Source: Egibacter rhizosphaerae (lineage in GTDB: Bacteria; Actinomycetota; Nitriliruptoria; Euzebyales; Egibacteraceae). Taken from it: a DNA stretch of 64,000 nucleotides. Positions within the stretch are counted from its first letter, which is position 1. Every line of letters begins with the position of its first letter. The translations under genes were made by a program, and so were the position numbers. Location: NCBI RefSeq assembly GCF_004322855.1, contig NZ_CP036402.1, positions 1,860,001 to 1,924,000 on the forward strand. The letters run 5' to 3'. Under the pieces are notes generated by a model. The model saw only the letters and a list, made by a program, of their open reading frames with translations. It did not search any database and was not told the origin of the DNA. Below are positions 7,993-47,447 of this stretch, in pieces.

Positions 7993-8703
7993 TCAGATCT
8001 GGAGCGGGCGCCCAGCCAGGAGATCGTCGGCGACGTCCCGCACTTTGCGGCGATGCGAGCGGGCGTGCTCGCGCATCCGTTCGAACGCCGTGTGCGGGGA
8101 GATTCCGAGCCGCTCGGCGAGCAGCCCCTTGGCCTGCTCCACCGCCACGCGCGCTTCGAGTGCGTGGGTGAGCTGGGAGACCGTGGTGTCCCTCGATCGG
8201 ATGATCTCTTCCTGCATGAGAGTAATCGCCGCCACATCCGCGAGTCCCTTGGCGACCACCGCATCCGTGTCGCCGAGGGGCTGGCGGTGCGCCTCCTGGA
8301 ACAGGTTCAGCGCCCCGATGGTGCGCCCACGCAGCCGCAGCGGGAACCCGTAGCCTCCGACGAACCCGAGCTCGAGCGCCCGCGGCACGAACCGTGGCCA
8401 CCGGTCGGCGGCGTTGTTGAGGTCGGCCTCCACCACCGGCGCTCCTGCCACGTAGGCCCCATAGGACGGGCCCTCCGCGGCGGCAACCTCGAACACCTCC
8501 AACTGGTCCATGCTCACACTGCTGGCCGCGACGGCTCGTAGCTGCTCGGGGTCCATCGCGAGCATCACTCCAGCCGCGTCGACGTCCAACAGCTCCACGC
8601 AGCGCTCGCACAACTCGCCCAAGAGTTCATCAGCATCGAAATCCTCGAGCAGCGAATCGCTCAGATAGACCAAGTTCTCGATGATGCGGCGCTCACGACT
8701 CAT
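7993..8703 (-). CDS. GAF and ANTAR domain transcription antiterminator
   Basis: A protein of 236 residues. An N-terminal GAF sensor domain (about 15-160, with GAYVAGAPV and GFPLRLRGRTIGALNLF) is followed by a C-terminal ANTAR RNA-binding domain of three helices (about 175-232, ALEARVAVEQAKGLLAERLG then AFERMREHAR). ANTAR proteins bind paired hairpins in nascent mRNA and prevent termination. In actinobacteria GAF-ANTAR fusions are common stress or redox regulators. The start ATG at 8703 follows GAGGTGGGGG. It is transcribed away from the hydrolase gene, end to end, and no target hairpins were identified. Confidence 0.9.
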   Translation of the reverse strand: MSRERRIIENLVYLSDSLLEDFDADELLGELCERCVELLDVDAAGVMLAMDPEQLRAVAASSVSMDQLEVFEVAAAEGPSYGAYVAGAPVVEADLNNAADRWPRFVPRALELGFVGGYGFPLRLRGRTIGALNLFQEAHRQPLGDTDAVVAKGLADVAAITLMQEEIIRSRDTTVSQLTHALEARVAVEQAKGLLAERLGISPHTAFERMREHARSHRRKVRDVADDLLAGRPLQI

Positions 8704-8937
8704 CCCCCACCTCACGGACGGCGCCTGACCGGACGGGCGACACCCTAGCCAACGGCGGTTCGGCGGCTTCGTGATGTCTACGGTCATTGGCGAGTTACGA
8801 GGACGGGATTGCGAACCTCCGGCATGCGGGGTACGACGAGGCGACCACTTCGCGCCCGTTGGACACAAAGACGACGCGTTGTCGCGGCCGTCTCCACGAC
8901 GATATCCAGCTCCTCATCCGTGTTCCAGCCTTCATGA

Positions 8938-9480
8938 TCAGCGATGTATTGGCAGCAGCAGCCGGGAAGGGTATGGGCCGCCGTGCATGAGTTCCTGCTC
9001 GGCAGGGTGCATGCTGGTTGCTGTGGCGAGCGGTTCTGCTGTTCCGAGATTGCGGGTGAACCGGGGGTGGGCTCCGCTGGAGACTTGCAGGCGTATGCGG
9101 TGGCCTGCTGGGAAGCGATAGGCGGTGCCGGCCATGTCGATCACTACCCGGTGAATGCCGGAGTCGTCGGGGCGTGCCTGGTCGGGTGAGAGACGAGTGA
9201 TCCCATCGCAGATATGGATCGATCTCCCGCGGGGCGTGACGTCGCAGAGCTTGGTGTAGAAGTCGGTGTGGTCCCGACTCGATCGTACGTGCAACTGTGC
9301 CGCCACCGGGCCGACCACGTCGCATTGGTCTTCGAGCGCGTCGCTGGTGAACGTCAGCACGTCTGGTCGGGCCTCGAGCCGGCGGGTGTCCTTTGCGCCG
9401 TAGCGGAACGGCAGGTCGGGCACGGCGCCGCCCACGTTCGGAGGGGGGTCCCGGGGATCGAAGCGGTAGGTCGTGGTGTG
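8938..9480 (-). pseudogene. CocE/NonD family hydrolase, C-terminal remnant
   Basis: About 180 codons encode the C-terminal jelly-roll domain of X-Pro dipeptidyl-peptidase/CocE-type hydrolases. Recognisable segments are TYRFDPRDPPPN, VLTFTSDALEDQ, DHTDFYTKLCDVTPRGRS, YRFPAGHRIRLQVSS and a natural ending PSRLLLPIHR. The catalytic alpha/beta-hydrolase domain (about 400 residues) that should precede it is absent; upstream sequence up to the DinB gene shows no homologous frame. It is a truncated relic. The internal GTG at 9433-9435 could start a domain fragment, but no function is expected. Confidence 0.78.
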
Positions 9481-9608
9481 GCATGTCCCAACGGGGGCCG
9501 GGTCGGATGGCCGCGTCTGCCACGCTGGCGCGGCGGCCGAGACTTGCCAAGCTCGTCGACGCCCGGGTGGCGCTACCGGCCGATGCGGCAGGGAACGCGA
9601 CCTCCACG

Positions 9609-10445
9609 TCAGCCGGCTTCGCCTGGGCGCGTCCCGGCGCCGTCGCCGTCTCCTTCGCGGGCTTGCAGCACGGCGAGGTCACGCTCGGCGAACTCTCGGT
9701 GGCGCCACTCCTCTTCAAGGATCGTTTCCACACAGCCACGGACCGGGTAGTGGTCGGGTTCCGGGTATCCGGGCTCGGTGACCGGCTCGGTCTCTTCGTC
9801 GAGACGCTCCTGGGTGAGACCGTCGAGCAGCTGACGCACCGTCTGCATCCGGTCCTGGCGCAGCGCGAGGACCTGGTCGAGGGAGGGGCGCGCGTCTGGG
9901 TCGTTCGGGACGCCAGGCAGCTCGCGGAAGGTGGTGTGCGGCAGGCCGAGGGGGTCCCAGGGGCGCGGTTGCCCCAGGACGGCGCGCCGGACCCACGCGT
10001 CGGTGGCGAACACGAGGTGCCGCATCGTCTGGATGAACGACCACTCGCCGTCGACCGACGCGTGCAGCAGTGCTGGGTCCAGGCCCCGCGCGCGGGCGAC
10101 CGTCTCGTCCCACCGTCGTTCGATGATGTCCCAGGCCTCACGGAACCCGTCCGGGTCGGTCGGACGCATCCTTCGGCGTTCCGGGTCGCGCCGGTCCAGC
10201 TCGGCCTCGATGAGCGGCGCGACGTCCACGCCGTTGACGACAAGGTTGGACACCTCGCCGTCGATCTCGACGTCGATCAGGTCGGCGCCGCGCATCACGG
10301 CGCCATCGAGCACCACCTGATCGAACCGGGCGCCGCGGAGGTCGACGAGGTGGAATCGGGCCTCGTTCAGCCTGACCGTCCGAAAGCGGGATCTGGAGAG
10401 GTCCTGGCGGTCAAACACGAGGGTTTCGCGCCCGGTGGCGGGCAT
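9609..10445 (-). CDS. DinB-like protein with N-terminal pentapeptide repeats
   Basis: A protein of 278 residues. The first 90 residues carry pentapeptide-type repeats (LSRSRFRTVRLNEARF, LRGARFDQVVLDGA, MRGADLIDVEID), forming a short quadrilateral beta-helix. The rest is a DinB/YfiT four-helix bundle with ASVDGEWSFIQTMRHLVFATD and a late EEEWRHREFAERD. Histidines in these two segments are candidates for the metal triad. DinB-type proteins include thiol S-transferases that use mycothiol in actinobacteria, which is a plausible but unproven role. The start ATG at 10443-10445 follows GGGAGGATCAGTC. Confidence 0.82.
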   Translation of the reverse strand: MPATGRETLVFDRQDLSRSRFRTVRLNEARFHLVDLRGARFDQVVLDGAVMRGADLIDVEIDGEVSNLVVNGVDVAPLIEAELDRRDPERRRMRPTDPDGFREAWDIIERRWDETVARARGLDPALLHASVDGEWSFIQTMRHLVFATDAWVRRAVLGQPRPWDPLGLPHTTFRELPGVPNDPDARPSLDQVLALRQDRMQTVRQLLDGLTQERLDEETEPVTEPGYPEPDHYPVRGCVETILEEEWRHREFAERDLAVLQAREGDGDGAGTRPGEAG

Positions 10446-10720
10446 GACTGATCCTCCCGTGTGGTCGGCACCTCGTCGGCCACGGTCGCGGCATCCCCGC
10501 ACGGGTCACGGAGTCAGTCTGCGAACCCAGTCTAGGACCGCAAGTGTACCTGACATGCTGCCCCACCGGGCGGCCACGGTAGGCGGCTCGGGTGGGTGCG
10601 GGTTGCGCATCGTCACGGTGGGGGCAGACCGAGTTCGGTCTGACTCCCCGGACCGGGCGACGCGTTCAAGCCTTGCCAGGTTAGGCCCGCGCGTCGGGTG
10701 AGACGCGTACGCTGGCAGCG

Positions 10721-10927
10721 ATGGCCAAGACACGGACCGTGCGACTGAACGAGCAGGTGGCAGCGAGGGTCGATGAGGTCGCGGCCGCCCAGGGCCTGGA
10801 CCCAGAGCAGTGGGTCAACGACCAGCTCGCGCGGGACCTGTTCCTCGCCAAGCTCGACGAGGTCCAGGCCAGCAATCTTGACCCGCGGTCCGAAGACGAG
10901 GCGGCCAAGATCGTCTACGGACGCTGA
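10721..10927 (+). CDS. Ribbon-helix-helix antitoxin
   Basis: A protein of 68 residues. TRTVRLNEQVAARVDEVAAA is the N-terminal beta-strand and first helix of a ribbon-helix-helix DNA-binding domain, and WVNDQLARDLFLAKLDEV forms the following helices. It ends two bases before the PIN toxin gene, giving a standard antitoxin-toxin operon. By family rule it would neutralise the toxin and repress the shared promoter. The start ATG at 10721 is the only reasonable one. This pair is independent of the vapBC at 1.8-4.5 kb. Confidence 0.82.
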   Translation: MAKTRTVRLNEQVAARVDEVAAAQGLDPEQWVNDQLARDLFLAKLDEVQASNLDPRSEDEAAKIVYGR

Positions 10928-10929
10928 CG

Positions 10930-11373
10930 TTGCGGGTCGTCATCGACCCCAACGTGCTGCTGTCGGCGTTGATCGCGCCTGGTGGCGCCAGCGACCAGGC
11001 GGTGCGCAGGATCGTTGTCCACGCCACGCCGATCGCCTCTCCGGAGCTGCTTGATCGTTTCGTGCAACGTGCGCGTGAGGAGCGGTTTCGGCGGTGGTTC
11101 AGCGTCGCCGGCGCTGAGGAACTGGCGGGACAGCTCGCCGAACTCGCTGAAGTCGCAGAGGATGCGGCGCACGTCCCTGCGGTCGGCGTTGCCGATCCCT
11201 CCGATGACTACTTGGTGGCCCTCGCCCGCCGCAGGCGCGCAGACCGCCTGCTTACTGGCGATCGGGGCATCCACCGCGCCCTTGACGGTGCCGACGACCT
11301 GCGCGTTGTATCGCCCTCCGATTTGCTCGGCGAGTTCCCAGCTGACGCAGACAGCCGGTCCGAAGGCGCATGA
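10930..11373 (+). CDS. PIN-domain toxin (putative toxin-antitoxin ribonuclease)
   Basis: A protein of 147 residues starting at TTG 10930. The opening RVVIDPNVLLSALIAPGGA holds the first catalytic Asp, VADPSDDYLVALARR the central acidic cluster, and LLTGDRGIHR the last Asp strand, all usual for the PilT/PIN group. The TTG lies two bases after the antitoxin stop, so translation is coupled. PIN toxins are Mg-dependent ribonucleases. This is the last chromosomal gene before the left att repeat of the island. Confidence 0.86.
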   Translation: MRVVIDPNVLLSALIAPGGASDQAVRRIVVHATPIASPELLDRFVQRAREERFRRWFSVAGAEELAGQLAELAEVAEDAAHVPAVGVADPSDDYLVALARRRRADRLLTGDRGIHRALDGADDLRVVSPSDLLGEFPADADSRSEGA

Positions 11374-11601
11374 GGGGTCGGCCGCCGACACGGTCGTCGT
11401 TTCACCCACCGCAGACGTTCCTGAGGCTCGGCGCGCCATGCAGCCCAGGCTTATGGCGAGTGCCGTCCGCAAGGAGGCCGCAGATGTTCGAGAACGGCGT
11501 GGCCGACTGAACCCGCTCGCTAATGGGCGAGCACTCGGCAGGAGCGCATTCGCAGCGCTTTGACCAGCGGCGATGCGTCAGTTGTACGTACGAATGGTGC
11601 T

Positions 11602-11646
11602 GGCGCGCCGGGGAGGATTCGAACCCCCGACCTTCTGATCCGTAGT
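11602..11646. repeat. Left attachment site (att repeat, partial tRNA-Arg)
   Basis: A 45-bp segment identical to 55285-55329. It reproduces the 3' part of tRNA-Arg(ACG) read on the minus strand: the acceptor 3' strand, T-arm, variable loop and half of the anticodon arm. It stops exactly where the anticodon arm would continue. It is not a functional tRNA. The position, on the far side from the intact tRNA, is what integration into the 3' end of a tRNA gene leaves behind. Confidence 0.93.
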
Positions 11647-11808
11647 GTAACCCTCGGCTCGGTCGGTGCGGGCGTGACCTGCGGTTTTGTCCTGCCAGCT
11701 GTGTCGCCGTTCCTGCCGGTCGGTGCCGGTCGCGGGCGACGCGTGCCACTCTGCGTGTCGCTTCGTTACTGAGCGAGAGTCCGGATCTTACCTCGCACGA
11801 CAATCGCG

Positions 11809-12991: not shown

Positions 12992-14935
12992 CTAGCCGGG
13001 GGGGTGAGGGGCGAGGAACGGCTCGGCGCATAGCTGCGCCACCATCGGCTCCCACCACGCGCCCGCCGCGGGGTCCACGGCGGCGAGGAACCACTCCCCC
13101 ACCCGCAGCAGAAACCGCTCCTGCGCGTCGCCGCAGCAACGCTGCGGGCGGTGCGGCGCGGCCGGCGTGCCCGCGGCCGCGGGCACGAGATCGAGCACCG
13201 CGTCCATGGTGCACGCGCGCACGCCGCGCTTGCCGTGGTCGGCGTCGTTCTCGGCGTGCACCACCTCGTAGCCGCAGGCGCGGAACCCCGCAGCCGAGAG
13301 GGCGGCGAACAGCGCCGCCCACGCCCGCGGTTCGCGATTGGCGTAGCTCAACAGCAGATGCCCGCCGGGTTTGAGGACGCGGCGGCACTCCACGAACACC
13401 CACGTGAGTAGCCGCTGGTAGTCGACGTCGTCTAAGGCAGTGGCCACCGCCTCGTCAGCCAGCAGTTCGCCCGTGCCGTCCCACGCCCGAAACAGTCCGG
13501 ACAGCTCGCCGTAGTGCACATCGTCGTGGTAGGGCGGGTCGGTCCAGATCACGTCGGCGCTGTGGGCGGGCAGCAGCATCCGGTGCGACGAGCCGCGGGT
13601 CACCCGCACATCCACGCGCGCGGGCATGCGACCGCGGCGCTGCTGCGCGGACCGGGGCCCGTCGACGGTGAGCTCGCCGGCGTGGGCGCGCAGCCACTCC
13701 GCGCTGCGGGCCAGCGCGTCCACGCGGCGGCGCACCGTGCCGCGTCCGACCGGCCCCACGCCCCACACGTGCGGTTCACACGCCAGCGTGGTGAGGCTGA
13801 ACCGGTGCGAGGACACCGCCTCGTAGGCCTTGAGGTAGCGACGCTCCCACCGCGACAGGTAACCGGCCATCTCGGTCGACCCGAGGACAGCCAGCCGCAG
13901 GGCGGCGCGCACCTCCTCGGCCGCGGACAGCTCCTCGACCGCGCGTAGCACCCCCTCGAGGACTACTTGCTGGCGCGGCGGGTAGCAGTCCTGCCACCGG
14001 CGGTAGCCGAAGCTGTGCAGCGCTCGGGTCTCCACGCCCACAGGGATCGCGCCGAGGTCGCGGTCAGGCGCCCACCCCTCGGTGGCCTGGGCGATCTCGG
14101 CCGCGGTGGGAGGGCTGAGGTCGCGGCGGCTCTCGGCGACGCGTTCGACGAGCACAGGGTCCCACTCGAGGCCGTTCGCCGCGACATCTCTCAACGGTGC
14201 GGCCGCGCCGCAGGGGCAGCGAAACACGCGGGCCGCGGTGTAGCGGTCCTCGGGCGAGACCCGAAGCCGACATACGGGGCAGGTCGAGGGCGCGCTCGCG
14301 CGGCCGGCGAACAGGTGCCCGTAGGCACAGGCCAGCCACGCGTCGTCGCCGCTGGCGAGGGTGTCGACGCGCTGGCGGCGGCTCACCAGCGCGTAGGGGT
14401 ACAGCCGCCAGCGCGCGTCGCACTCCGGGCAGCGGCCCGCCGCGACCCGGATCGTGTGCGCCACCGCAGCGGGCTCACCGGTCGTGGAGCGGGTGGCATA
14501 GGCGCGCTCTAGCAGCGAGCGGCAGGACTCGTGCAGCGCGTCGGCGGCCTCGAGCAGCGCCTCCCGCGGCGGCAGGGACAGCATCGTCGCCAGTCCCGCC
14601 GCCGCCCACGGGTTGATGTCCTGGGCGTACACGCGGTGGCCGCGCACGGTGGCCGACAGCGCAACCGTGCCGCCGCCGGCAAACGGGTCGACGACTAGCA
14701 GCCGCGGATCGGGCGCATCTGCGGCGACGGCATCGAGTACCCCGCCGGTGACTGCCTCGGTGCGGCGCGCCCACCACCGGTAGGTCGACACCGGCGGCAC
14801 GTGCCGCTCGCGCGCGCGGCTCTCGCGCCGCGCGGCTGCGGACACCGCAGAGGTGTCGAGGTGGCGCAGTGGGCTGACCACCCCCGGCGGCGCGGCAGGT
14901 CGCCCCCCCGGGGTTTCCTGGGGGTCTGAGGTCAC
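12992..14935 (-). CDS. DPPY-type DNA methyltransferase with zinc ribbons (DISARM-associated)
   Basis: A protein of 647 residues. The SAM-binding motif I is DPFAGGGTVALSA (about residue 85) and the catalytic motif IV is WTDPPYHDDVHY (about 463), the order used by N6-adenine and N4-cytosine amino-methylases. Between them lie cysteine pairs (CPECDARW, CPVCRLR, CPCG) that look like zinc ribbons, as in the COG1743/DUF1156 methylases. The N-terminal STYRWWARR also fits that group. The start GTG at 14935 is chosen; an ATG at 14992 is possible. Within the operon it would supply the self-marking methylation of DISARM. It is not a C5-cytosine enzyme: the PCQ motif of that class was not seen. Confidence 0.85.
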   Translation of the reverse strand: MTSDPQETPGGRPAAPPGVVSPLRHLDTSAVSAAARRESRARERHVPPVSTYRWWARRTEAVTGGVLDAVAADAPDPRLLVVDPFAGGGTVALSATVRGHRVYAQDINPWAAAGLATMLSLPPREALLEAADALHESCRSLLERAYATRSTTGEPAAVAHTIRVAAGRCPECDARWRLYPYALVSRRQRVDTLASGDDAWLACAYGHLFAGRASAPSTCPVCRLRVSPEDRYTAARVFRCPCGAAAPLRDVAANGLEWDPVLVERVAESRRDLSPPTAAEIAQATEGWAPDRDLGAIPVGVETRALHSFGYRRWQDCYPPRQQVVLEGVLRAVEELSAAEEVRAALRLAVLGSTEMAGYLSRWERRYLKAYEAVSSHRFSLTTLACEPHVWGVGPVGRGTVRRRVDALARSAEWLRAHAGELTVDGPRSAQQRRGRMPARVDVRVTRGSSHRMLLPAHSADVIWTDPPYHDDVHYGELSGLFRAWDGTGELLADEAVATALDDVDYQRLLTWVFVECRRVLKPGGHLLLSYANREPRAWAALFAALSAAGFRACGYEVVHAENDADHGKRGVRACTMDAVLDLVPAAAGTPAAPHRPQRCCGDAQERFLLRVGEWFLAAVDPAAGAWWEPMVAQLCAEPFLAPHPPG

Positions 14936-15016
14936 TGCCACACCACCCACTCGTGCACCTCCAGTGCGTCTTGCGTGCGCTTTAGCGCGCATGCTGGCCA
15001 GTGGACGCGCGGCAAC

Positions 15017-15833
15017 CTACCGCCCGGCAGGGGGATCAGGTGGGCAAGCGCCCGCCTCCGCGGGGTCGGCGACGAACAGGCCTGCCTCGGTGAGCGAGCC
15101 CAGCAGCCCGCGCAGTTGCTCGCACTGGCGGGCGCCCAGGCCGCACCGATCTCGACGTGCTGCTCCGGTCCCTGCGAGCTGAGGTTGGCGGTGCCCAGGT
15201 AGCCCTCGCGGCAGTCGGCGACGAACTTGGCGTGCATCAGCGACCGCGCAGGCCCCTGGTACCACCAGGTGCGCACCTGCGGGGGTGCGCCGACCGCACC
15301 GATCAGCGCACCCAGCCGGTCACGCGCCGCGGCGTCGGGCCAAGCGTGCACGTAGAAGGCGCAGGCCACGCCGCGTTCGGTGATCGCGGGGGCCAGCACG
15401 TTGAGCAGCCGCTGGATGCCCGGGTCGTTCCAGAACGGGCCGCCGAGCAGCACCTCGCTGGTGGCCATGCGGATCACCCGCTCAACAAAGAGGTCGAGCC
15501 GCTCGCGCGGTTCGATGAGCCCCTGCGCGGGCTCGGGCACGGTGAACACCAGTGAGGGGTCGCGGCCCGGCGGCGGCGGGGCGCGGGGGGTGCAGCGCGC
15601 AGCACCTCGCACACCGTGGTCAGCAGCGCCGTGCGCGCCAGGGTGCCGCGGTCGTGCGCGTCGACCAGGCCGAGCTCACGAGCCTGCCTCCGCAGTGCCA
15701 CGCGCACGTCGCCGTGGGCAACGTTGAGCGCGGCGGCGCCCTGCTCGCCCATCCGGTACGCCAGCGCGGCGGCCCCGCCGTAGCCGCCCGTGACATCGGC
15801 CAGTTGCCCGGCAAACGTGACCAGATCGTCCAT
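15017..15833 (-). pseudogene. drmC: DrmC-like phospholipase-D protein, two frameshifts
   Basis: Three successive frames make one PLD-fold protein. ATG at 15833 starts MDDLVTFAGQLADVTGGYGG and runs to CEVLRAAPP. Near the G6 run at 15585-15590 it passes to the frame of SLVFTVPEPAQG and the catalytic HxK stretch SLMHAKFVADCREGYLG with GTANLSSQ. Near 15136-15145 it passes to CEQLRGLLGSLTEAGLF and a stop at 15017. One missing C at each point would restore a single frame of about 270 residues. DrmC is dispensable or modulating in studied DISARM systems. The gene may be truly broken or these may be sequencing errors in GC runs. It follows drmB by 17 bases. Confidence 0.8.
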
Positions 15834-15850
15834 TCGCGCCGCCGCTCCCC

Positions 15851-17653
15851 CTAGGTGCGCCAGAAGTCCATCGCGAGTTCGCGCGAGAGATCGCTGTTGA
15901 ACCGTCGGCAGCCGAACGTGAGGTACAAGCAGCGCTCGCACGCACGCGGGCGGCGGTGGTGGCACAGCGGGTCGTTGTCGCAGCGCCAGCTCGCATCGAA
16001 CGCGCGTTCCATCCACTCGAGGCTGCGGCTGTGCAGCAGCGTCCACAGCGCCCCCAGGGTGTGAGACTGGAAGCTGGACACATAGATGCTGATCGTCAGC
16101 GTCTCGGGCACCAGCCACTCGGCCAGCGACGCCTCCCCGAACCCGGTGCGCCCATCGTCGAGAGCGCGCAGGAGCACATGCGAGAGCGTGTGCACGAGCA
16201 CGCGGGTGTCCTGCGGCCCCTCGGGGGCGGTCTCCTCGACGGCGAACATCTCCAGCACCGCGGCGCGGGCGTCGCGCTCGTCGGAGGGCACCGGGGCGGG
16301 GTAGCTGCCGCGGCGCCGCAGCCAGGCCAGCACGTCGACGGCCGACAACGCCACCAGCGCCGCCTCGGTGTCGGTAGTGACCGCGAAGATCGGGTCCTTG
16401 TTGTCGTACTCGCCACGGCGCGCGAACCCACGCAGCGTCGAGGTGTTGGGGCGCTTGGAGGTGCGCGTGTAGCCGTAGGCGGCCACGGCGATGGGGAACT
16501 GGTCGGTCACCGCAAGTTCGTCCACGCCCAGCTCGCCGGCGCGTTCGCGGGCGCGCAGGAGCGCGCGCTCCTGCGCGGTGCGCCCGGTCCGCTGCGCCTC
16601 GTCGTGCGCGTCCTCGAGCCGGTAGCGGGCGACCTGCTGAGGGTCGTACAGGGTCGCGCGTTCCAGCATGCGCCGCTCGGCGGCGAGGCCGCAGGCCGCG
16701 GCGCTGAGGTCGCTGGTTGCCGCCACCCCCTCGGTGGCGGGTCCGCGGCGGCGGCGGATTGCCTCGATCTCGTCGTCGTCGAGTTGGCTGTACTTGGTGC
16801 GTATCGCCTCCTCCCACTCCTCTTGGCTCATGCGCTCGCCGGACTCCCCGCCCGCGAGCTCGTTCAGCGCAATCCCCACGCGGGCCTCGTCGCCGAGGTA
16901 GGAGGCGGCGGCGATGCGCCCGCGGGCGTGGTGGCGCTGCAGCTGCTCGTAGGCGTTGGTCTTCAAGTTCAGCAACGACACGGTCTGCGGGTAGAAGCTG
17001 CGGGGGTCTCGGACGGTGTACTGGCGCATGAACGCTTGGCTGCTGGTCTGCTGGGGGGAGAGGTACTGACCGCAGTCGCACGGCGACATGCGCGTGCCCT
17101 TGATGTAGGCGTTGCCGCAGGTTCGGCACCGCCAAGCCGCGGTCTCGAACGAGCCGGTGTCCTCGAGGAAGACGTTCTCGTCGCTGCCGCACCCGCGGCA
17201 GGTCGGCACGAACATTGGCTGGATCCGCCCGCACGCGTGCGCGCTGTAGTAGCGCAGCTGGCGCAGCCGCGAGCGGCAGTGCTCACAGCGCACCCGCTGG
17301 TCGCCTTCGCGGGCCTCGAGGACCTGCTCGTCGCGGTAGAAGCGGCGGACGCGCTGGCAGTGGCGGTTGGCGCATTGGAACACCAGCGGCCACACCTCCC
17401 ACTGCACGAGCACGGGTTCGATGACCACGAAGGCCTCGTCGCTGGTGTCCCGCGGCACCCGGATGCCGGCGCGCTTGTCCTCGTCCCACCGGCGCAGCTC
17501 GTGCTCGACCTCGGCGAGCAGCGCGTTCTTGTTGATGGTGGGGCCCAGCGGGTTGCCGCGCACCACCGAGGTGCGCACGACCAGCTCGTCGTCGTGCAGG
17601 TACACCGCGCCGGGCAGGTAGCGGTACAGCGTCTGCGAGCGGCTGCGTTGCAT
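15851..17653 (-). CDS. drmB: DrmB, DUF1998 protein of DISARM
   Basis: A protein of 600 residues. The DUF1998 C-terminal region is recognisable: LVHTLSHVLLRAL, then EWLVPETLTISIYVSS and a closing cysteine cluster CHHRRPRACERCLYLTFGC. The N-terminal half has several zinc-binding pairs (CEHCRSR, CRGCGS, CRTCGNAY, CDCG). In DISARM, DrmB forms a complex with the DrmA helicase and is needed for phage DNA recognition. The ATG at 17653 overlaps the drmA stop by one base (TGATG), so the two are translationally coupled. Confidence 0.9.
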   Translation of the reverse strand: MQRSRSQTLYRYLPGAVYLHDDELVVRTSVVRGNPLGPTINKNALLAEVEHELRRWDEDKRAGIRVPRDTSDEAFVVIEPVLVQWEVWPLVFQCANRHCQRVRRFYRDEQVLEAREGDQRVRCEHCRSRLRQLRYYSAHACGRIQPMFVPTCRGCGSDENVFLEDTGSFETAAWRCRTCGNAYIKGTRMSPCDCGQYLSPQQTSSQAFMRQYTVRDPRSFYPQTVSLLNLKTNAYEQLQRHHARGRIAAASYLGDEARVGIALNELAGGESGERMSQEEWEEAIRTKYSQLDDDEIEAIRRRRGPATEGVAATSDLSAAACGLAAERRMLERATLYDPQQVARYRLEDAHDEAQRTGRTAQERALLRARERAGELGVDELAVTDQFPIAVAAYGYTRTSKRPNTSTLRGFARRGEYDNKDPIFAVTTDTEAALVALSAVDVLAWLRRRGSYPAPVPSDERDARAAVLEMFAVEETAPEGPQDTRVLVHTLSHVLLRALDDGRTGFGEASLAEWLVPETLTISIYVSSFQSHTLGALWTLLHSRSLEWMERAFDASWRCDNDPLCHHRRPRACERCLYLTFGCRRFNSDLSRELAMDFWRT

Positions 17654-21329: not shown

Positions 21330-23809
21330 TCAGGTGCCAGGTGGGTGCACGCCCCCGAGGGCGTGGGCGGGGATCTCCTCGCGTGGTTCGATGCGGCGGA
21401 CGGTGGCGACCTCGAACTCGTCGAGGACGTCCGAGGGGTCGCCGCCGAGCTCGGCGGCCAGCGCCCGCAGGTTGGGGCCCGCCCCGTCGGCGGCCTCGCG
21501 CATGGCGCCGGAGATCACCCGGCCGATGCGCTGGTGCAGGCCGCGGAGCTCGCGGGCGACCTCGGCGACGCGGCGCCAGTGCCGCTGCAGCCACTCGTCG
21601 CCGGCGAGACGGGCGATGCAGGCGATGTCCTCGGGGTGTTGTGGCGCGATGGTGCGGCCATGGGCCCACGCGTCGAGCTGGGTGCGCACCTGGCAGCCGG
21701 CGTGGCGCAACCGCGCTTCGATGGTGGGCTGGTGCTGGTCGCAGTCGGCGACGACCGCGCGGCAGGCGCGCCGCCAGCGTTCAATGACGACTTTGAGGTC
21801 CTGCACGTCGTGGTCGCGGTGCTTTTCCTCGACCAGGCGGGTGAACAGGTCCTCGCGGCCCGTGCCGCGAGCGACGATGACCTGATCGCCGGGTGCCAGA
21901 TCCTCGACGTGCCATCGCCGGTAGCTCATGGCCGCGACCCGCTCGATGGCGGAGTCCTGCGGCACCAGCCACACCTGCCCCGACGGTTCGAGCTCGACGG
22001 CGTAGCCGGGCACCGGCGCGTGCGACGCGCCGCCCCCGGGCCGCGGCGCGTCGCGGTCGCCGGGATCGTCGGCGACGCGCTCGAGCGCGGCGAGGTCGGC
22101 GGTGAGCCCTGCGAGGTCGACGTCGAGGTCGACCGGGGTGACCGCGGGCTCGGGGCCGGGGGGGATCCCGTCGAACCGCCGCGGCGTGGCGGCGGCGGCG
22201 CGCGGCGCGGCGTCGGCGTCCAGGCCCTGCAGCGGGAACGAGCGCCGCAGCGCCGCGCTGGCGCGGTCGGCCTCCGCGTCGAGGAGGCCGGGCAGCGCCT
22301 CGACCTCCCACGGGTAGGCAAGCACGATGCGTCGGTTGGCCTCGCCCGACCACAGCGCCTCGCGGCGCGACCGCGGCGGCAGCGCGGGGAGGATCTCGGT
22401 GGTGTCGCGCTCGGACCACGGCAGGCGCGCGGTCCACGGCACGATTTGCAGGCGCTGGTCGCCCAGCGCCAACTCGTGCTCGCCGTACTCGAGGAGGTCG
22501 TCGACCACCGCGGCCGCGGCGGCCTCGCTGGCCACCCGCACCACGAGGCGGTGCTCGGGGTAGCGCCGCGCGCTCACTTCGAGGGCGCTGAGCAGTGCGA
22601 GGAACTTGGGGTTGTCCGCGGTGAGGCCGTCGACGAGGTCGAGGATGAGCGCGCGCAGCCCCTCCCAGCGCGTTGCGGCGTACCGGTGCCACATCCCGCC
22701 GAGGTCGCTGCTGCGGGTGCGGGCGACGTCGGCGCGCAGGCTGTTGAGGGTGCGGGCGCGGTGGTCAAGCGCCGCGGAGCGGTTGAACGCCTCGGCGGTG
22801 CTGGCCAGCTGCACCAGCGTGTTCAGTGTGCGGCGCGCGGCCTGCAGCGGGTAGGGCAGCTCCTCGGCGACGCGGTGGGCGTCGGTGAGCAGCGTGATCG
22901 CCTGCCGCATGCTGCGGTCGAACGCGGGCGCGTGCACGTCACTGTAGGCCACCTCGCCGGGGTCGCGGTCGAGCAGCGCGCTGGTGGTCAGCGGCGAGCG
23001 GGTCCGCTCGCGCCCGCCCGAGCGCCACAGGGCGGCGACGAGTTCGTCGATCACCGGCCAGTGCGACACGACCGCGCAGCGCTCGTCGACCACGCGGGCG
23101 GTCTCGCGGTCGCCGAGGTCGCTGACCACGACCAGCCGGCGCGCCTCGTGCGCCTCTGCCCAGTCAAGCGCCCGCGCGCGCAGGTCGGGGTTGCGGAAGG
23201 TGGTGCGATCGATGACCACCAGCCCGTCGCGCTCGCCCGGCAGGGGGGATAGCCCACGCGCGTGTTGAGGTACAGCATCCGCTGGCGGCCCACGCGGTAG
23301 GGCACGATCGCCCCCGAGGGGTCGACCAGCTGTCCGTCGCTGCGGACCCGGTGCACCGCGAGCCCCTCGGCGAGGCCGACGTTGTGTAGGCTCACGCGGC
23401 GCAGACGGCGCTGCAGCGCGCTGTCCATCCCGATGACCGTGACCGACCCGTGAAACGGGGGCTCGCGGCGCGCGCCGTCGAGCGTGGACCGCAACCGCGC
23501 GAGTTGGGCGAAGATCCCCAGCATGGCGGCGACCTCGTGCGCGCCGCGGGGCAGCTGCACGTGCAGCGCTGCCGTCGCGCCGTGGCGCACCCGCAGTCGC
23601 GCCAGCCAGCAGGTGAGCGCGGCGAGTACCTGGTCCAACGCGCCGAGCCAGACATCCGCGCCGTCGTCGCGCAGACGCAGCTCGCGCAGCGCCGCGACCG
23701 TGTAGTCGGGCGGCCCCTCGTAGCCCAGCAGCTCGTCGACCCAGTCGTCGTCGCGATCGGGGTGCAGCGGAGGGCCGCTGTTCGGTGGCGCTGTCGTTGC
23801 TGGGTCCAT
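21330..23809 (-). pseudogene. drmE: DrmE-like protein of class 2 DISARM, one frameshift
   Basis: An about 826-residue protein encoded in two frames. The ATG at 23809 (MDPATTAPPNSG, after GGGCGGGAGC) begins the first part, which ends at RQRMLYLNTRVGYP. A run of six C on the coding strand (plus 23243-23248) then shifts reading to LPGERDGLVVIDRTTFRNP and on to the stop at 21330. One extra C repairs the frame. Size, position before drmA and lack of familiar catalytic motifs match DrmE, the component unique to class 2 DISARM. I cannot point to a diagnostic motif, so the name rests on context and size. The C-terminal part contains GDQVIVARGTGREDLFTRL, a beta-strand/helix unit. Confidence 0.62.
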
Positions 23810-24085: not shown

Positions 24086-24823
24086 CTATCCCCAGCCCCT
24101 TCGGGCGAGGACGACGCCGCGCACTCTCTCGGCGCCGTGGCGGCGCAGCACTCGCGCGAGCGCGTCGAGGGTGTGCCCGGAGGTGCAGACGTCGTCGTAG
24201 ACGAGGACGAGGCGGCGGATTCGGCTGGGGTCTGGCACGACGGTGGCGGCGGCGAGGTCGTCGGCGGCGGCGCGTTTCTCGGGCAGAGTCCCGCGAGCGG
24301 ACGTCCGCGTAGCACGGGTCAGGGTGAGGACGGGTTGGGGGCTGTCGTCGAGCGGCCAATAGCCGAGCATGTCCGACTCGGCCGCCTGTCGTACGACCTC
24401 CTCGGTGTGGCCGAAGCTGCGGCCTCCTGACCCGGTCCAGGTGGGCGCCGCTACTACGAGACCGACGTCCCAGGGCGCGTAGTGGCGGTCGAGGTAGCCG
24501 AGCAGTAGCCGCGCGAAGATGAGCTTCCACCCCCACTGCCGCTGGTACTTGTATCGCTCGATGGCGCGCTTGAGTCCCCCCGAGTGCATCGCGATCGCGT
24601 CGATCGCCTCGATGCTCCGAGCGGGGTCGTTGCAGAGGCTGTTGATGCACGGGTCATCCGACGACTCGCGTGCCTGGCTGCAGACCGGACAAGCGTAGGC
24701 CGAGACCGCCTCCATGCTCTGATGTGCACAGCCGTAACAGGTCTCCACCGGGCCGGTGAGCTGGTAGGCGCACTCCGCGCAGTCGGGGAAGCCGGCCGGT
24801 TCCGGAGGTGGCTCCCAGGTCAC
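24086..24823 (-). CDS. ComF-like phosphoribosyltransferase with zinc ribbon
   Basis: A protein of 245 residues. The N-terminal 60 residues have CAECAYQLTG, CYGCAHQ and CPVCSQ, a zinc ribbon. The C-terminal part carries the PRTase loop RLVLVYDDVCTSGHTLDAL (PRPP site, DD at about 205) of type I phosphoribosyltransferases. In competent bacteria ComF helps DNA uptake together with DprA. Here it sits 21 bases after dprA inside a defence island, so the pair is more likely a DNA-handling defence module than a competence operon; no other competence gene is present. The start is GTG at 24823. A gap of 276 bases separates it from drmE. Confidence 0.83.
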   Translation of the reverse strand: MTWEPPPEPAGFPDCAECAYQLTGPVETCYGCAHQSMEAVSAYACPVCSQARESSDDPCINSLCNDPARSIEAIDAIAMHSGGLKRAIERYKYQRQWGWKLIFARLLLGYLDRHYAPWDVGLVVAAPTWTGSGGRSFGHTEEVVRQAAESDMLGYWPLDDSPQPVLTLTRATRTSARGTLPEKRAAADDLAAATVVPDPSRIRRLVLVYDDVCTSGHTLDALARVLRRHGAERVRGVVLARRGWG

Positions 24824-24844
24824 GCGAGACCTCGTGCGGCCCGG

Positions 24845-25801
24845 TCAGAGGACGTCAAGTGCGAGCTGGCGGGCGCGCTGCCCCGCCCTGGCGATCTGCG
24901 CTGGGCTGGCGAGCTCCCGAAGGACGTCATCGACGTCGGCTACCTCGACGGCGCCGCGCTCGTGGACGTACTTGTGCGCCCACGTCTGTCCGGTGACGAG
25001 GCTGCGCAGTAGCCACACGCGCTTGCCGTGCTCGAGCGCGAGTCTGGCCTGCATTTTCGCGCCGCTGGTCTGGCTTGCCTCGACCACGACCGTTCCTTGG
25101 GTGATGCCTGACATGGTGCGGTTGCGGCGCGGGAAGGTGTGCCGCGCCGGCGGCATCGAGGGCCAGAACTGCGAGACCAGCGCGCCGCGCTTCTCGTCGA
25201 GGATGCGGTCGGCGAGCTCGGCGTGGTGGGCGGGGTAAATGCGGGTGATGCCGGTTCCCATCACGGCGATGGTGCGGCCGTCGGCATCCATCGCGGCGAG
25301 GTGCGCTGCCCCGTCGATGCCCTGGGCGAGCCCGGAGGCGACGGTGACGCCACGAGCTGCGAGCTTGTGGGAGATCTGAGCAGCGCGGCGCAGTCCGAGG
25401 TCACTTGGCTGGCGGGTGCCGACGACCGCGACGGACACGAGGTCGTCCTCGGTGAGGTGTCCTCGGATGAACAGGAACGGCGGCAGATCGTGGACGAGCC
25501 GAAGGGTGGCGGGGTAGTCCTCGTCGAGGACCGTGACCAGGGAGGCGCCTGCCTCTTCCGCGAGCTGCAGCTCCTGCTGCACGCGCTCGCTGGCGCGGTC
25601 CCAATCGTCATGCAGGACAGCACGCAGTAGTTCGCGGGTGCTGTCGGCCGCCGTCGACCGCTCGTGTACCTGCCCCTCGCCCAACAGGTCGGGCCCGTCG
25701 CCGCGGAGGGCCTCGCGGGCCACCACGTTCCAGTCCGGACCTGAGCCATCGTGGCGGAGTGCGCACACGGTGAGCAGGCGGTGCTGCGCGTCAGTGACCA
25801 T
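24845..25801 (-). CDS. DprA/Smf family protein
   Basis: A protein of 318 residues. The Rossmann-like DprA core is clear: LVSVAVVGTRQPSDLG (about 121), VASGLAQGIDGAAH (about 155), IAVMGTGITRIYPAHH, FPRRNRTMSGITQGTVVVEA and the closing SGAKMQARLALEHG. DprA binds single-stranded DNA and loads RecA. It lacks the C-terminal winged-helix domain of many chromosomal DprA proteins. An N-terminal helical extension of 100 residues precedes the core. The start ATG at 25801 has GAGGAG upstream. It is first in the row of minus-strand genes leading into the DISARM-like set. Stand-alone DprA-like proteins are frequent in mobile defence contexts. Confidence 0.87.
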   Translation of the reverse strand: MVTDAQHRLLTVCALRHDGSGPDWNVVAREALRGDGPDLLGEGQVHERSTAADSTRELLRAVLHDDWDRASERVQQELQLAEEAGASLVTVLDEDYPATLRLVHDLPPFLFIRGHLTEDDLVSVAVVGTRQPSDLGLRRAAQISHKLAARGVTVASGLAQGIDGAAHLAAMDADGRTIAVMGTGITRIYPAHHAELADRILDEKRGALVSQFWPSMPPARHTFPRRNRTMSGITQGTVVVEASQTSGAKMQARLALEHGKRVWLLRSLVTGQTWAHKYVHERGAVEVADVDDVLRELASPAQIARAGQRARQLALDVL

Positions 25802-31603: not shown

Positions 31604-32996
31604 GGACTGTCAGATGCACGGTGTATCGGGGCTGGCCACGTGGTCACTCTCCTGCGGGTAGCAGGCGGCCCTCGAACGTGATCTGGAACGCGTTGAGGGC
31701 GGGCTTCCAGCGGTTCATCCACCTCCTTCTACCGCGGCCGGTGGGGTCGAGGCTGCGCACCGCCAGGTACAGGCACTTCAGCGCGGCCTGCTCGTTGGGG
31801 AAGTGACCGCGCGCCCTGGTCGCTCGGCGCATGCGCGCGTGCAGTGATTCGATCGCGTTGGTGGAGTAGATCACCCGGCGGATCTCGGGGCTGTAGTCGA
31901 GGAAGGGCACGAACTCGGTCCAGCTGTTCTCCCACAGCTTGGTGACCGCGGGGTACTGCTCGCCCCAGAGCTCGTTGAAGTCGGCGAGGCGCTCCTTGGC
32001 GGCGTGCTCGCTGGGCGCGGTGTACACCGGCCGCAGGTCGCGGGCCATGGCGTCCCAGTCGCGGCGTGAGGCCAGCCGGAAGGTGTGGCCGATGCAGGTG
32101 GGAGCACACAGGTCTGGATCACCGCCAGCGGCCACGTCGCCTCGATCGACTCCGGTAGCCCCTTGAGGCCGTCGCAGACGACGATGCACACGTCCTCGGT
32201 GCCGCGGTTCTCGGGTCTCGGTCAGGACCTGCAGCCAGAACTTGGCGCCTTCGCCGCCCTGGCCGATCCAGATGCCTGTGGATGTCTCTGGTGCCGTCGG
32301 CGGTCACGCCGATGGCGGTGTCCGCGGGCCGGTTGGTGACCTGCCCGTCGCGGACCTCGGGCCACGACGCGCGCGACGAACACTGCGGCGTAGACGCGCT
32401 CGAGCGGCCGGCTTGAGCCAGTCGCCCATTTCCTCTCTGGATGCGGTCGGTGATCTTCGACACCGTCTCGCGCGACACCTCGGCGCCGTACACCTCCGCC
32501 AGGTGCGCGGACACCTCCCCGGTGGTCAACCCCTTCGCGGTCAGCGACAGCACCATCTCATCGACGCCTGACAGGCGCCGCTGGCGCCTTTTGACCAGCT
32601 TGGGCTCGAACGAACCCTCCCGATCCCTGGGCACCTCAAGCGGCACGGGGCCGATCTCGGTCAGCACGGTCTTGGCGCGTGTGCCGTTGCGCGAGTTGCC
32701 GCCGTCGCGGCCTTCGGCGGCGTGCTTGTCGTAGCCCAGATGCTCGGAGAGCTCGGCTTCGAGCCCGGTCTCGAACACCTGCTTGGTCAGCCCCGTCAGC
32801 ACCCCGGCGGGGCCGACCAGGTCGAGGCCTTCCTCGCGCGCCTGTTCGACGAGGCGTTCGGCGACCTCGCGGTCGTCGTCCGAGCGTTGCCGCTCGGCGT
32901 TGTCTCCAGTCGTGTCGGTCATCAGCTGTCCCTTCTGGCCGAGCGGATAGCTCAGCCTGTCAGGCCAGCCCCGTTACACCGATCAACTGACACCCC
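31604..32996. mobile_element. Decayed IS256-family element
   Basis: About 1.4 kb with related ends: the left end near 31604-31636 and the right end near 32961-32996 both contain TGTCAG, then CGGTGTA and CGGGGCTGGCC when read inward, with scattered mismatches. The transposase gene between them is frameshifted several times. No exact 8-bp target duplication could be seen, which fits an old insertion. Confidence 0.75.
31644..32922 (-). pseudogene. IS256-family transposase, several frameshifts
   Basis: The N-terminal part (ATG 32922) is typical: GLTKQVFETGLEAELSEHLG, GNSRNGTRAKTVLTEIGPV and VPRDREGSFEPKLV. The catalytic centre is scattered over other frames. The C-terminal part reads IGHTFRLASRRDWDAMARDL, AAKERLADFNELWGEQYP and VIYSTNAIESLHARMRRAT, where TNAIES carries the catalytic glutamate. 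At least two shifts lie between 32100 and 32450. It is not functional. Confidence 0.85.
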
Positions 32997-39415: not shown

Positions 39416-40603
39416 ATGTCGATTTCTGCGAGCGGGCTTATTGCGGCGTGTCGTGACACCGCCGTCGACGCCGGCCTGCACATTCACAGCAGCCTCGAAC
39501 CACTCGGGGGCGAGGGGAGCCCGATCAAGCCTGCGGTCTACGAGGGCGGCGTGTACCAGCACGATCGGCGGTGGCCACCCGATGGCCGTGCGGAGCCCGT
39601 CGATGTGCTCGTGGTCGACAACGTGCCCAGTCAGGCCAACCGCCTCGAGGCCGCTCTCGAACGCCACGCCGGATGGCTCGGGCTACCGCGTGTGGTCCTC
39701 GATCTCTCCGGGGTTGGGGCGCTGCCGCCACATCTGCCGGCGACGATCAGCGGATTTCGGTTCCCCCATCGGCACGCTGACGCGTATCTGCGCGACTCGA
39801 TGCTCGACGGCACCCCGTTCCAGCGAACCGAGATCGGCCGGCGACTGCGCGACGCCACCTCGGACCATCCGGCTGCGCTGCTTGAGTGGTTCCCGCAGGC
39901 GCTGCTGTTCGGGTTCTGGCAGTCCCACCTGGCGAAGGGGCAGAGCCAGGCCAAGCTCGCGCGCTCTTGGATCTCCGAGACCGTCGGCTACGAGCCCGCC
40001 ACGACCGAGACCCGCCAGCTCGGCCTCAAGGGCGACCCGCTCAACCTAAGCGTCGAGCAGCGGGTGCAGTTCGACGAGTCGGACCGCAGCGCGTGGGAGT
40101 TGACCGAGGAGGCGCGCGGCGGCGGCCGGGGAGAGCGACTGTCCGAGCTCGGGCACGGGCAAGTGCCGATCTCGGTCAACGACGCCGCGCCCGGCGGTGT
40201 GTCGTTCGCGTCGATCGAGCAGCAGGCGACACTGTCGCTCGCCGGGTTGCGGCGGTTGACCTTCGGTGCCGAGGATCCGCGCAACGCTCCTGCCCGAGCC
40301 GTGGTCGCCGCCATCGGGCTGTTCGCGCACGCGGCGGCGTTCGACCGCGCGTTCAGCTTGCGCTCGGGCTGCGATCTCCGCTCGACCGGCAGCACGTGGA
40401 CGTGGCTGGGCGAGGCCGGCGACACGCCGGTGGACCCGCTCGACGTCGCCAGTGCGCGCGAGTTGCTGGAGGGCTGCGCCGCGGCGGCAGAGGAGGTCGG
40501 GTTGCCCGTCGGCAGCGCATGGCCTTCCGAGCCGCTGGTCGTTGAGCCGCACGAGCAGCTGTCCAAGGCGATCCGCAAGACCTACCCGGAGGTTGACTCG
40601 TGA
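39416..40603 (+). CDS. csb1: Type I-G Cas7 (Csb1)
   Basis: A protein of 395 residues and first gene of the cas operon. Family landmarks are DVLVVDNVPSQANRLEAAL, DLSGVGALPPHL, HRHADAYLRDSMLDGTPFQ, LLFGFWQSHLAKGQSQAK with LARSWISETVGYEP, and the late FASIEQQATLSLAGLRRLTFG. Csb1 (GSU0053 type) forms the Cas7 backbone along the crRNA in the type I-G (I-U) complex. ATG 39416 has GGAAGGAAGG upstream. Its stop overlaps csb2 (GTGA). Confidence 0.93.
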   Translation: MSISASGLIAACRDTAVDAGLHIHSSLEPLGGEGSPIKPAVYEGGVYQHDRRWPPDGRAEPVDVLVVDNVPSQANRLEAALERHAGWLGLPRVVLDLSGVGALPPHLPATISGFRFPHRHADAYLRDSMLDGTPFQRTEIGRRLRDATSDHPAALLEWFPQALLFGFWQSHLAKGQSQAKLARSWISETVGYEPATTETRQLGLKGDPLNLSVEQRVQFDESDRSAWELTEEARGGGRGERLSELGHGQVPISVNDAAPGGVSFASIEQQATLSLAGLRRLTFGAEDPRNAPARAVVAAIGLFAHAAAFDRAFSLRSGCDLRSTGSTWTWLGEAGDTPVDPLDVASARELLEGCAAAAEEVGLPVGSAWPSEPLVVEPHEQLSKAIRKTYPEVDS

Positions 40604-42126
40604 TCGCGGTGGAGGTGGAGTTGCTGCACGGCGTCCTGCGCCTGGCCGGGTCCGACGCGGCGGTCACGGGGGTGCCGACGACGGGCGAGTGGCCACCGAG
40701 CCCGGCCCGGCTGTTCGCGGCGCTCGTCGCCGCTGATGGCACCGGTCGGCATTGCACGGTCACCGACGGCAGCGAGCTTGAGTGGCTGGAGTCGGCGGGT
40801 GCGCCCGAGCTGATCGCCGACGACCGTGACGACGTGCTCGTCTCGCCGGTGACCCCTCGCTATGTCGTCGACGACCAGCGCGCAGCGGGCACGGTGCAGG
40901 ACTATCCAGCGCGCAAGGCCACCATGGTGCGTCCGGGTGTGCGGGTGTGCCCGCGCCGACCGCGGGTGGTCTACGAGTGGCCGGACGCGACGCCGCCAGC
41001 CCACGTCGTCGAAGGGCTGCAGCGTCGCGCCGCCCGGGTCGGCTACCTCGGCTGTGCCGACAGCCCGGTCCGCATGCGCGTCGCGACCACCCCGACTAAC
41101 CCGATGGAGGAGGACGACGCGCCCGCCGGTGCCGCGCGATCCGCCGCGTCGCGGCGTTGGCGCGTCGGCGAACAGGGCATGGACGTGCTGCCGGTACCCT
41201 GGCAGGGCAGCCTCGCGGTGCTCGACGACGCCTACGAGCGCTGGCGCGCCGGCCAGCCGGTCCGCCGCGCCTGGCTACCGACCGGGCACGCGCGCTACAC
41301 GGCGCCGCACACCCGACGCGACGACGCTGACGAGACGTGGGCGGGGGTGTGGCTGCGGCTGCGCCCAGCGCTCGACGGGCGGCGGGTGCGCCTTGTCACC
41401 GAGACACTGCGGGCCGCCGTGCTGGAGCACTACGAGCGGCACGTCGCCGGCGCGAGCGAGCAGGTGCCCGCGGCACTGCACGGCCACGGCTACACCGGCA
41501 CTGGCCTGGACCACGCCTACTGGCTGGCGCTGCCCGATGTCGGCCACCGCCACGCGCGCGGGCGGATCCTCGGCGCAGCGGTCGCTCTGCCGCCCGCCGC
41601 CCGGCTGGGGGTAAGCGCCGACGAACGTGCGCATCTGTTGGAAGGACTGCGCAGCGCGTTGTGGCACGTACGCGAGCTCGTCGCTCCCGGCGCATTCCGT
41701 GTCCAGGTCGAACCAGCGGGCGCTGCGGGGCAGCGCGTGTGGAGCACGCACCCCCGACGATGGACGCAGCCAGCGCGCCGCTGGGCCTCGGTGTTTCCCG
41801 TCGTACACGAGCGCTTCACCGGCAAGGGCCTGGACCTCGACGAGGTCGCTCGCTGGTGCGCCCACGCGGGACTGCCAGCGCCAGTGGGGTTCAGAGCAAG
41901 CCGACCGCCGCTCGTTCCCGGCGGCGTCGCGCTGCGAGCGCACGAGGCGCGCCGCAACGCCGCCGGCCGGCGGCCGTTCACCCACGTCGAAGTGACTTTC
42001 GCCGAGCCGGTCGCCGGCCCAATGGCGCTCGGTCGGCTCCGCCACTTCGGTGTCGGCCTCATGGCGCCGGTCGACGACACCCCGAACCCCGACACAACAG
42101 TGACCGCGCAGGAGGTCGGCCAGTGA
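40600..42126 (+). CDS. csb2: Type I-G Cas5/Cas6-type protein (Csb2)
   Basis: A protein of 508 residues starting at GTG 40600, overlapping csb1 by four bases. The N-terminal ferredoxin-like part is Cas5-like (GEWPPSPARLFAALVAADG). The C-terminal part has HGHGYTGTGLDHAYWLALP and VGHRHARGRILGA, where histidines probably form the Cas6-type crRNA-processing site. In type I-G, Csb2 acts as both 5'-handle binder and processing nuclease; no separate cas6 is present in the operon, which agrees with that. Length is within the family range. Confidence 0.9.
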   Translation: MIAVEVELLHGVLRLAGSDAAVTGVPTTGEWPPSPARLFAALVAADGTGRHCTVTDGSELEWLESAGAPELIADDRDDVLVSPVTPRYVVDDQRAAGTVQDYPARKATMVRPGVRVCPRRPRVVYEWPDATPPAHVVEGLQRRAARVGYLGCADSPVRMRVATTPTNPMEEDDAPAGAARSAASRRWRVGEQGMDVLPVPWQGSLAVLDDAYERWRAGQPVRRAWLPTGHARYTAPHTRRDDADETWAGVWLRLRPALDGRRVRLVTETLRAAVLEHYERHVAGASEQVPAALHGHGYTGTGLDHAYWLALPDVGHRHARGRILGAAVALPPAARLGVSADERAHLLEGLRSALWHVRELVAPGAFRVQVEPAGAAGQRVWSTHPRRWTQPARRWASVFPVVHERFTGKGLDLDEVARWCAHAGLPAPVGFRASRPPLVPGGVALRAHEARRNAAGRRPFTHVEVTFAEPVAGPMALGRLRHFGVGLMAPVDDTPNPDTTVTAQEVGQ

Positions 42127-45802: not shown

Positions 45803-45804
45803 CC

Positions 45805-47441: not shown

Positions 47442-47447
47442 GCCGTC

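What the first reader, a model, noticed from the sequence alone, without database searches (positions are those of the whole stretch)
24086..25801. DprA plus ComF-like phosphoribosyltransferase as a module in front of DISARM
Two genes 21 bases apart encode a DprA without winged-helix domain and a zinc-ribbon PRTase. They lie in the same direction just upstream of the DISARM-like genes, with no competence genes around. A DNA-binding Rossmann protein paired with a PRPP-using enzyme could sense or modify invading single-stranded DNA, or regulate DISARM. I do not know of this pair as a described DISARM component.
Basis: inference. Interest (0 to 1): 0.72.

Follow-up and report, generated by a model that had tools for sequence, protein, structure and literature searches.

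The report
Mobile DprA-phosphoribosyltransferase pair near DISARM
Two neighbouring genes, a DNA-handling DprA protein and a ComF-like phosphoribosyltransferase, form a roving module related to the known ShosTA anti-phage system; they most likely lie beside a DISARM defence system here by chance and are not part of it.

Summary
On the minus strand a DprA without winged helix (25801-24848) is followed 21 bases later by a ComF-like PRTase with eight conserved cysteines (24823-24089). DISARM genes follow (drmE from about 23809, then drmA, drmB, drmC, methylase). Neither gene is the host's competence copy: the genome has a housekeeping dprA beside comM and another ComF-like gene elsewhere.

The DISARM reading fails. 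None of 18 other actinobacterial DISARM loci (one truncated), including the two closest (44-47% identity), has this DprA or PRTase within about 10 kb. None of about 20 other loci with the pair shows DISARM.

The pair is a mobile module. All 24 plasmids that encode the PRTase (Streptomyces, Kitasatospora, Embleya) have the DprA directly upstream. The DprA falls in a 100/97-supported clade with plasmid- and phage-borne, PRTase-paired DprAs, apart from housekeeping DprA. It is ShosTA-like, but the PRTase is not ShosT. In at least 10 Streptomyces loci a true HAD-PRTase ShosT lies upstream, giving ShosT-DprA-ComF-like PRTase; the window has the two-gene form. Window-type DprAs also end in a conserved QLxL tail, resembling a sliding-clamp-binding motif (untested). 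New variant of a known kind; function inferred.

The parts
24848..25801 (-). DprA-like protein, 318 aa, Rossmann (SLOG) core without winged helix, C-terminal tail ...RQLALDVL
   Evidence: Pfam/NCBIfam hits; PADLOC ShosA 228.6 bits against 174.3 bits for the genome's own housekeeping DprA; tree clade 100/97 with pair-associated DprAs
24089..24823 (-). ComF-like phosphoribosyltransferase, 245 aa, eight conserved Cys (two putative zinc sites), PRPP motif VLVYDDVCTSGHT
   Evidence: Pfam PRTase; family alignment; AlphaFold model pLDDT 87, best matches HpComF Z 14.4 and ShosT Z 11.6
24848..24868 (-). C-terminal tail codons (QLALDVL) of the DprA, a motif resembling a beta-clamp-binding peptide
   Evidence: Q-L-[ATS]-L in 16 distinct DprA tails, absent from the 33 others without a known PRTase partner in the same table

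Best explanation
The pair is a free-standing, horizontally moving two-gene module of the ShosTA kind that happens to sit in the same defence island as a DISARM system and a type I-G CRISPR. SHOWN: conserved tandem order; a DprA lineage separate from housekeeping DprA; plasmid and phage carriage of the DprA lineage; a ComF/ShosT-like PRTase fold (predicted) with an intact PRPP loop; a neighbouring ShosT gene in most Streptomyces relatives. INFERRED: the DprA binds single-stranded or branched DNA at replication or entry intermediates of invading DNA, perhaps tethered by its C-terminal QLxL tail to the sliding clamp, and through direct contact (as ComFC does with DprA in competence) controls the PRTase, which acts on the PRPP/nucleotide pool. 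When an invader disturbs the DprA-DNA state, the PRTase activity is released and growth of the cell and the invader stops. In relatives that also carry ShosT, the ComF-like PRTase would be a third component that tunes ShosA/ShosT rather than the toxin itself; in the window it is the only PRTase partner.
For: DprA-PRTase adjacency in 24/24 plasmids and in about ten genome loci; plasmid or phage context without DISARM; DprA tree; PADLOC ShosA/ShosT hits; ShosT gene next to DprA in at least 10 Streptomyces loci; fold match to HpComF Z 14.4 and to ShosT Z 11.6, both above generic PRTases at 9.3 or less. Literature: DprA+PRTase protects against T7 and lambda (PMC9122126); ShosT disturbs purine metabolism and ShosA is a DNA-binding antitoxin (review PMC12593503); ComFC binds ssDNA and its S. 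pneumoniae and C. jejuni homologues interact with DprA (PMC9005727).
Against: No activity was tested. The PRTase is only marginally similar to ShosT by sequence (29 bits) and slightly nearer to ComF/GntX; it lacks the HAD domain. Its coexistence with ShosT argues against it being a simple toxin substitute. The relatives come mostly from one genus. The Streptomyces plasmid context also fits a plasmid-establishment role.
Confidence: 0.62

Rival explanations
1. The pair is a competence-like ssDNA-handling module of mobile elements: ComF-like PRTase and DprA protect incoming single-stranded plasmid or conjugative DNA and hand it to RecA, helping the element to establish. No toxin is involved.
For: The PRTase fold is closest to H. 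pylori ComFC (Z 14.4), which protects ssDNA and whose relatives bind DprA; two of the plasmids carry a CoiA-family gene nearby; mostly plasmid-borne; PRTase relatives without DprA exist, one beside conjugation-type genes.
Against: At least 10 loci carry a true ShosT next to the DprA, which points to the toxin-antitoxin world; the DprA lacks the winged helix and belongs to a clade that includes PRTase-paired DprAs of temperate phages. In the window the pair is chromosomal, in a defence island.
Confidence: 0.25
2. The pair is a genuine accessory part or regulator of this DISARM system.
For: Same strand, 276 bases upstream of drmE in this genome.
Against: 0 of 18 other DISARM loci have it (one truncated), including the two closest (L154, L159); 0 of about 20 pair loci have DISARM. 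Streptomyces cellulosae plasmids carry both but 92 kb apart. The drmE and drmC reading frames in the window are broken while the pair is intact.
Confidence: 0.05
3. The pair is a decayed or neutral remnant of a larger ShosTA operon that lost its toxin gene (an orphan antitoxin plus accessory protein, perhaps acting as an anti-addiction module).
For: Most Streptomyces relatives have ShosT upstream, and the window has no ShosT trace there, with transposase-like fragments beginning within about 0.7 kb upstream.
Against: Both frames are intact with invariant active-site residues; ShosT-less pairs also occur on Kitasatospora and S. venezuelae plasmids and in two other genomes.
Confidence: 0.08

Closest known systems
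ShosTA (DprA-like antitoxin ShosA + HAD-PRTase toxin ShosT; PMC9122126; PDB 8zvb-d, 9vzo, 8zva)
   Same: DprA without winged helix next to a PRTase; mobile-element carriage; DprA scores 54 bits higher against ShosA than housekeeping DprA does; the PRTase model overlaps the ShosT PRTase region over 185 residues.
   Different: The window PRTase has two putative zinc sites, no HAD domain and only a marginal ShosT match; in relatives it stands beside a real ShosT.
ComFC (ComF) with DprA in natural transformation (PMC9005727; PDB 7p0h)
   Same: Cys4-type zinc site plus PRTase fold with PRPP loop; known DprA partner.
   Different: The region that is RGFNQ in ComF is replaced by a family-specific sequence; eight cysteines; no competence genes adjacent; the host has another ComF-like gene.
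PsyrTA/RqlHI (RecQ-PRTase + DprA)
   Same: PRTase paired with a DprA; a same-family genome (L218) has one, whose DprA also ends in QLAL.
   Different: No RecQ helicase in the window; the DprA scores far lower on PsyrA than on ShosA.
DISARM class with drmE and DNA methylase
   Same: Neighbouring genes in the window.
   Different: DprA and this PRTase were not found in any other DISARM locus examined.

Membership tests
ShosTA | ShosA-type DprA lacking winged helix | tested here: met
   PADLOC ShosA 2.4e-68, 228.6 bits against 174.3 for housekeeping DprA; no C-terminal domain. The model is not fully specific, as housekeeping DprA also hits it.
ShosTA | Adjacent PRTase gene | tested here: met
   21-base gap; conserved in 24/24 plasmids
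ShosTA | Toxin is ShosT: HAD domain fused to PRTase | tested here: not met
   245 aa, no HAD domain; ShosT model 1.7e-7 over 61 residues only. A search of the window with a ShosT profile found no HAD-PRTase.
ShosTA | Toxicity of the PRTase, neutralised by the DprA; phage protection | not testable with these tools
   needs wet-lab work
DISARM component | Recurrent linkage with drmA/B/C/E | tested here: not met
   0 of 18 other DISARM loci (one truncated); 0 of about 20 other pair loci
Host competence genes (dprA/comF) | Being the genome's single, comM-linked dprA and its only ComF | tested here: not met
   Second dprA next to comM/YifB and another ComF-like gene at 1362156; separate tree clade
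PsyrTA | RecQ helicase fused to PRTase | tested here: not met
   No helicase domain in P0001; PsyrT 24 bits on the PRTase end only
ComFC | Cys4 zinc site and PRTase domain with PRPP loop | tested here: met
   Alignment A4 and fold match Z 14.4; but NCBIfam comF only 33.5 bits against a cut-off of 233.55
ComFC | Role in DNA uptake with comEC/comFA | not testable with these tools
   No com genes next to the pair; function not assayed

The most novel reading that the evidence does not exclude
Actinobacterial ShosTA is often a three-part system, ShosT - DprA - ComF-like zinc PRTase, in which the DprA is the hub, the ComF-like PRTase is its constant partner and ShosT is optional. These DprAs replaced the winged helix with a short C-terminal QLxL tail that docks them on the replication sliding clamp, so they monitor replication of invading DNA. 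The window is the ShosT-less form.
Probability: 0.3. Interest if true: 0.62.

Novelty: new variant of a known kind. Interest (0 to 1): 0.42.

Why it matters
It removes a proposed new DISARM component and replaces it with a testable point about ShosTA: in Actinobacteria the DprA often keeps a second, ComF-like PRTase, with or without the toxin. That ties anti-phage DprA systems to the ComFC-DprA pairing of natural transformation, and the conserved QLxL tail offers a specific, easily mutated hypothesis for how such DprAs find replicating DNA.

Tried and rejected
DISARM linkage: tested from both sides, negative. Host competence copy: rejected. Calling the PRTase ShosT on the PADLOC hit alone: rejected, because real ShosT proteins in relatives score 1e-23 to 1e-30 and are separate genes. 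Viral contigs: 45 pattern matches, none confirmed, so the window-type PRTase was not found in IMG/VR by this search. DrmE as a survey handle: too rare (2 of 396 genomes), so DrmA was used. The Pu et al. 2025 ShosTA paper is not held; its content is cited from a review. An AlphaFold job for the DprA was not finished. The QLxL tail is not universal: DprAs paired with other PRTase types in Gordonia, Rhodococcus, Burkholderia and Pseudomonas elements lack it.

Full report
WHAT IS THERE. The window is bases 1860001-1924000 of a single-contig 4.64 Mb genome, 71.5% GC in this window. On the minus strand lie a DprA of 318 aa (25801-24848 plus stop) and, 21 bases on, a PRTase of 245 aa (24823-24089 plus stop). 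The starts agree with the N-termini of relatives. Downstream on the same strand come drmE (ATG 23809), drmA, drmB, drmC and a DNA methylase. Between the PRTase stop and the drmE start are about 276 bases, so the pair is close to DISARM but not tightly fused to it.

NOT THE HOST'S COMPETENCE GENES. The genome has a second dprA at 1071778 next to a comM/YifB gene and another ComF-like gene at 1362156. The two DprAs share 32% identity. In a maximum-likelihood tree of 45 DprAs the window protein groups with PRTase-paired DprAs of Streptomyces-type plasmids, a same-family genome (G129), two other genomes, Gordonia phage Vasanti and Burkholderia phage Mana (support 100/97). The genome's own second DprA groups with the DprAs of related genomes (100/98).

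NOT A DISARM COMPONENT. I searched 396 genomes of the phylum with the window's DrmA, took about 10 kb on either side of the 17 best DrmA loci where the contig allowed, and added the Streptomyces cellulosae and Rubrobacter tropicus plasmid loci (the latter appears to be the same record as L161). Neither tblastn nor profile search found a DprA or this PRTase in any of the 18 distinct loci; one, L160, is too short to judge. This includes the closest relatives, G382 (L159) and S. cellulosae (L154), with the same drmE-drmA-drmB-drmC order. Conversely, none of the loci bearing the pair had a match to the window's DISARM proteins. S. cellulosae plasmids carry both systems 92 kb apart.

A MOBILE TWO-GENE MODULE. 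Of 72,556 plasmids, 24 encode a relative of the PRTase over at least 80% of its length (34-42% identity), all in Streptomyces, Kitasatospora or Embleya, and all 24 have the window-type DprA directly upstream (annotated examples). The pair also occurs in two other genomes of the phylum, G220 and G061, and in eight genome-collection loci. Gordonia phages, a Burkholderia phage, a Pseudomonas phage and actinobacterial plasmids carry DprA with PRTases of other subtypes.

RELATION TO ShosTA. DprA with an adjacent PRTase was described as an anti-phage system that protects against T7 and lambda (PMC9122126), and actinobacterial ShosTA is reported to be often plasmid-encoded (PMC10482375), which fits. 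The window DprA scores 228.6 bits on the ShosA model against 174.3 for the housekeeping DprA. The PRTase, however, is not ShosT: it has no HAD domain and only a marginal local match. The decisive clue is upstream of the DprA in Streptomyces: the 'hypothetical' gene there is a HAD-PRTase that matches ShosT at 1e-23 to 1e-30. It is next to the DprA in L038, L041, L043, L045, L046, L048, L049, L050, L052 and L156, divergent in L042, and not found in Kitasatospora (L039), S. venezuelae (L040), L047, G220, G061 and the window. L158 has ShosT and DprA without a recognisable ComF-like PRTase. So the ComF-like PRTase is a separate DprA partner, with or without the toxin.

THE PRTase. Its PRPP motif VLVYDDVCTSGHT is intact, and D210, D211, T214 and eight cysteines are conserved or nearly so. 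The region that is RGFNQ in ComF is replaced by a family-specific sequence. The AlphaFold model (pLDDT 87) matches H. pylori ComFC best (Z 14.4, 182 residues), then ShosT with PRPP (Z 11.6, 185 residues), with generic PRTases at 9.3 or less. ComFC binds ssDNA, and its homologues in S. pneumoniae and C. jejuni interact with DprA (PMC9005727).

THE DprA TAIL. Window-type DprAs end in Q-L-[ATS]-L plus two or three residues: window RQLALDVL, Streptomyces QQLALAGL, G220 QQLTLSLL. The same core ends the DprA of G129, of the P2-type phage ShosA (QQLSLLGDE) and of a PsyrTA-type DprA in G172 (PQLALDI). It is absent from 33 DprAs without a known PRTase partner in the same table, and from 10 DprAs paired with other PRTase subtypes. 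A random 16-residue tail of the same composition has it in 1.2% of cases. The sequences are related, so the Fisher value overstates independence. The pattern resembles bacterial sliding-clamp-binding peptides (my knowledge: QLxLF and QLxLxL types, e.g. the C-terminus of Pol IV). Binding is not tested.

MECHANISM. Shown: anatomy, linkage, lineage, predicted fold, mobility. Inferred: the DprA binds ssDNA or fork intermediates and contacts the PRTase, which acts on PRPP or nucleotides; disturbance by an invader releases its activity. For ShosTA itself a review reports that ShosT disturbs purine metabolism and ShosA is a DNA-binding antitoxin (PMC12593503). Whether the ComF-like PRTase is an effector or an accessory is open: coexistence with ShosT favours accessory, ShosT-less loci allow effector.

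LIMITS.

Noticed in passing
window 21330-23809 and 14932-15900 (minus strand): drmE and drmC appear frameshifted relative to Streptomyces cellulosae and G382 homologues (drmE near 23246 at a G6 run; drmC near 15590 at a G6 run and again near 15080): either assembly indels or a decaying DISARM.
   Followed up: partly
window 39416-51150 (plus strand): Type I-G CRISPR-Cas genes (csb1, csb2, Cas3-extension, cas4/cas1, cas2) followed by an array of about 43 repeats, including an exact tandem duplication of a 218-base three-unit block at 48196-48631. The Cas4g/Cas1g ORF matches only the first 192 of 546 model positions, so it may be frameshifted too.
   Followed up: partly
window 31644-32922 (minus strand): IS256-family transposase split over two overlapping ORFs in different frames, another apparent frameshift in this window.
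   Followed up: no
L038 9567-12726, L041, L043, L045, L046, L048-L050, L052, L156: Streptomyces three-gene arrangement ShosT (HAD-PRTase) - DprA - ComF-like PRTase; the plasmid ShosT genes seen are annotated only as 'hypothetical protein'.
   Followed up: yes
L218 (G172, same family as the window genome): A PsyrTA-type pair: RecQ-PRTase followed by a DprA that also ends in QLALDI.
   Followed up: partly
L176 about 8284-11800 (G061): The DprA-PRTase pair lies directly beside a comM-like fragment and the housekeeping dprA, as if inserted at the competence dprA locus.
   Followed up: no
L216 8879-10587 (G129, same family): A window-clade DprA paired with a different zinc PRTase subtype (DDTFTTG motif) in a region that looks like a mobile element.
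   Followed up: partly
L053 9902-12653 (Dormibacterota MAG): A window-type PRTase without DprA, followed by genes that look like a replication-relaxation protein and a conjugation-type ATPase.
   Followed up: no
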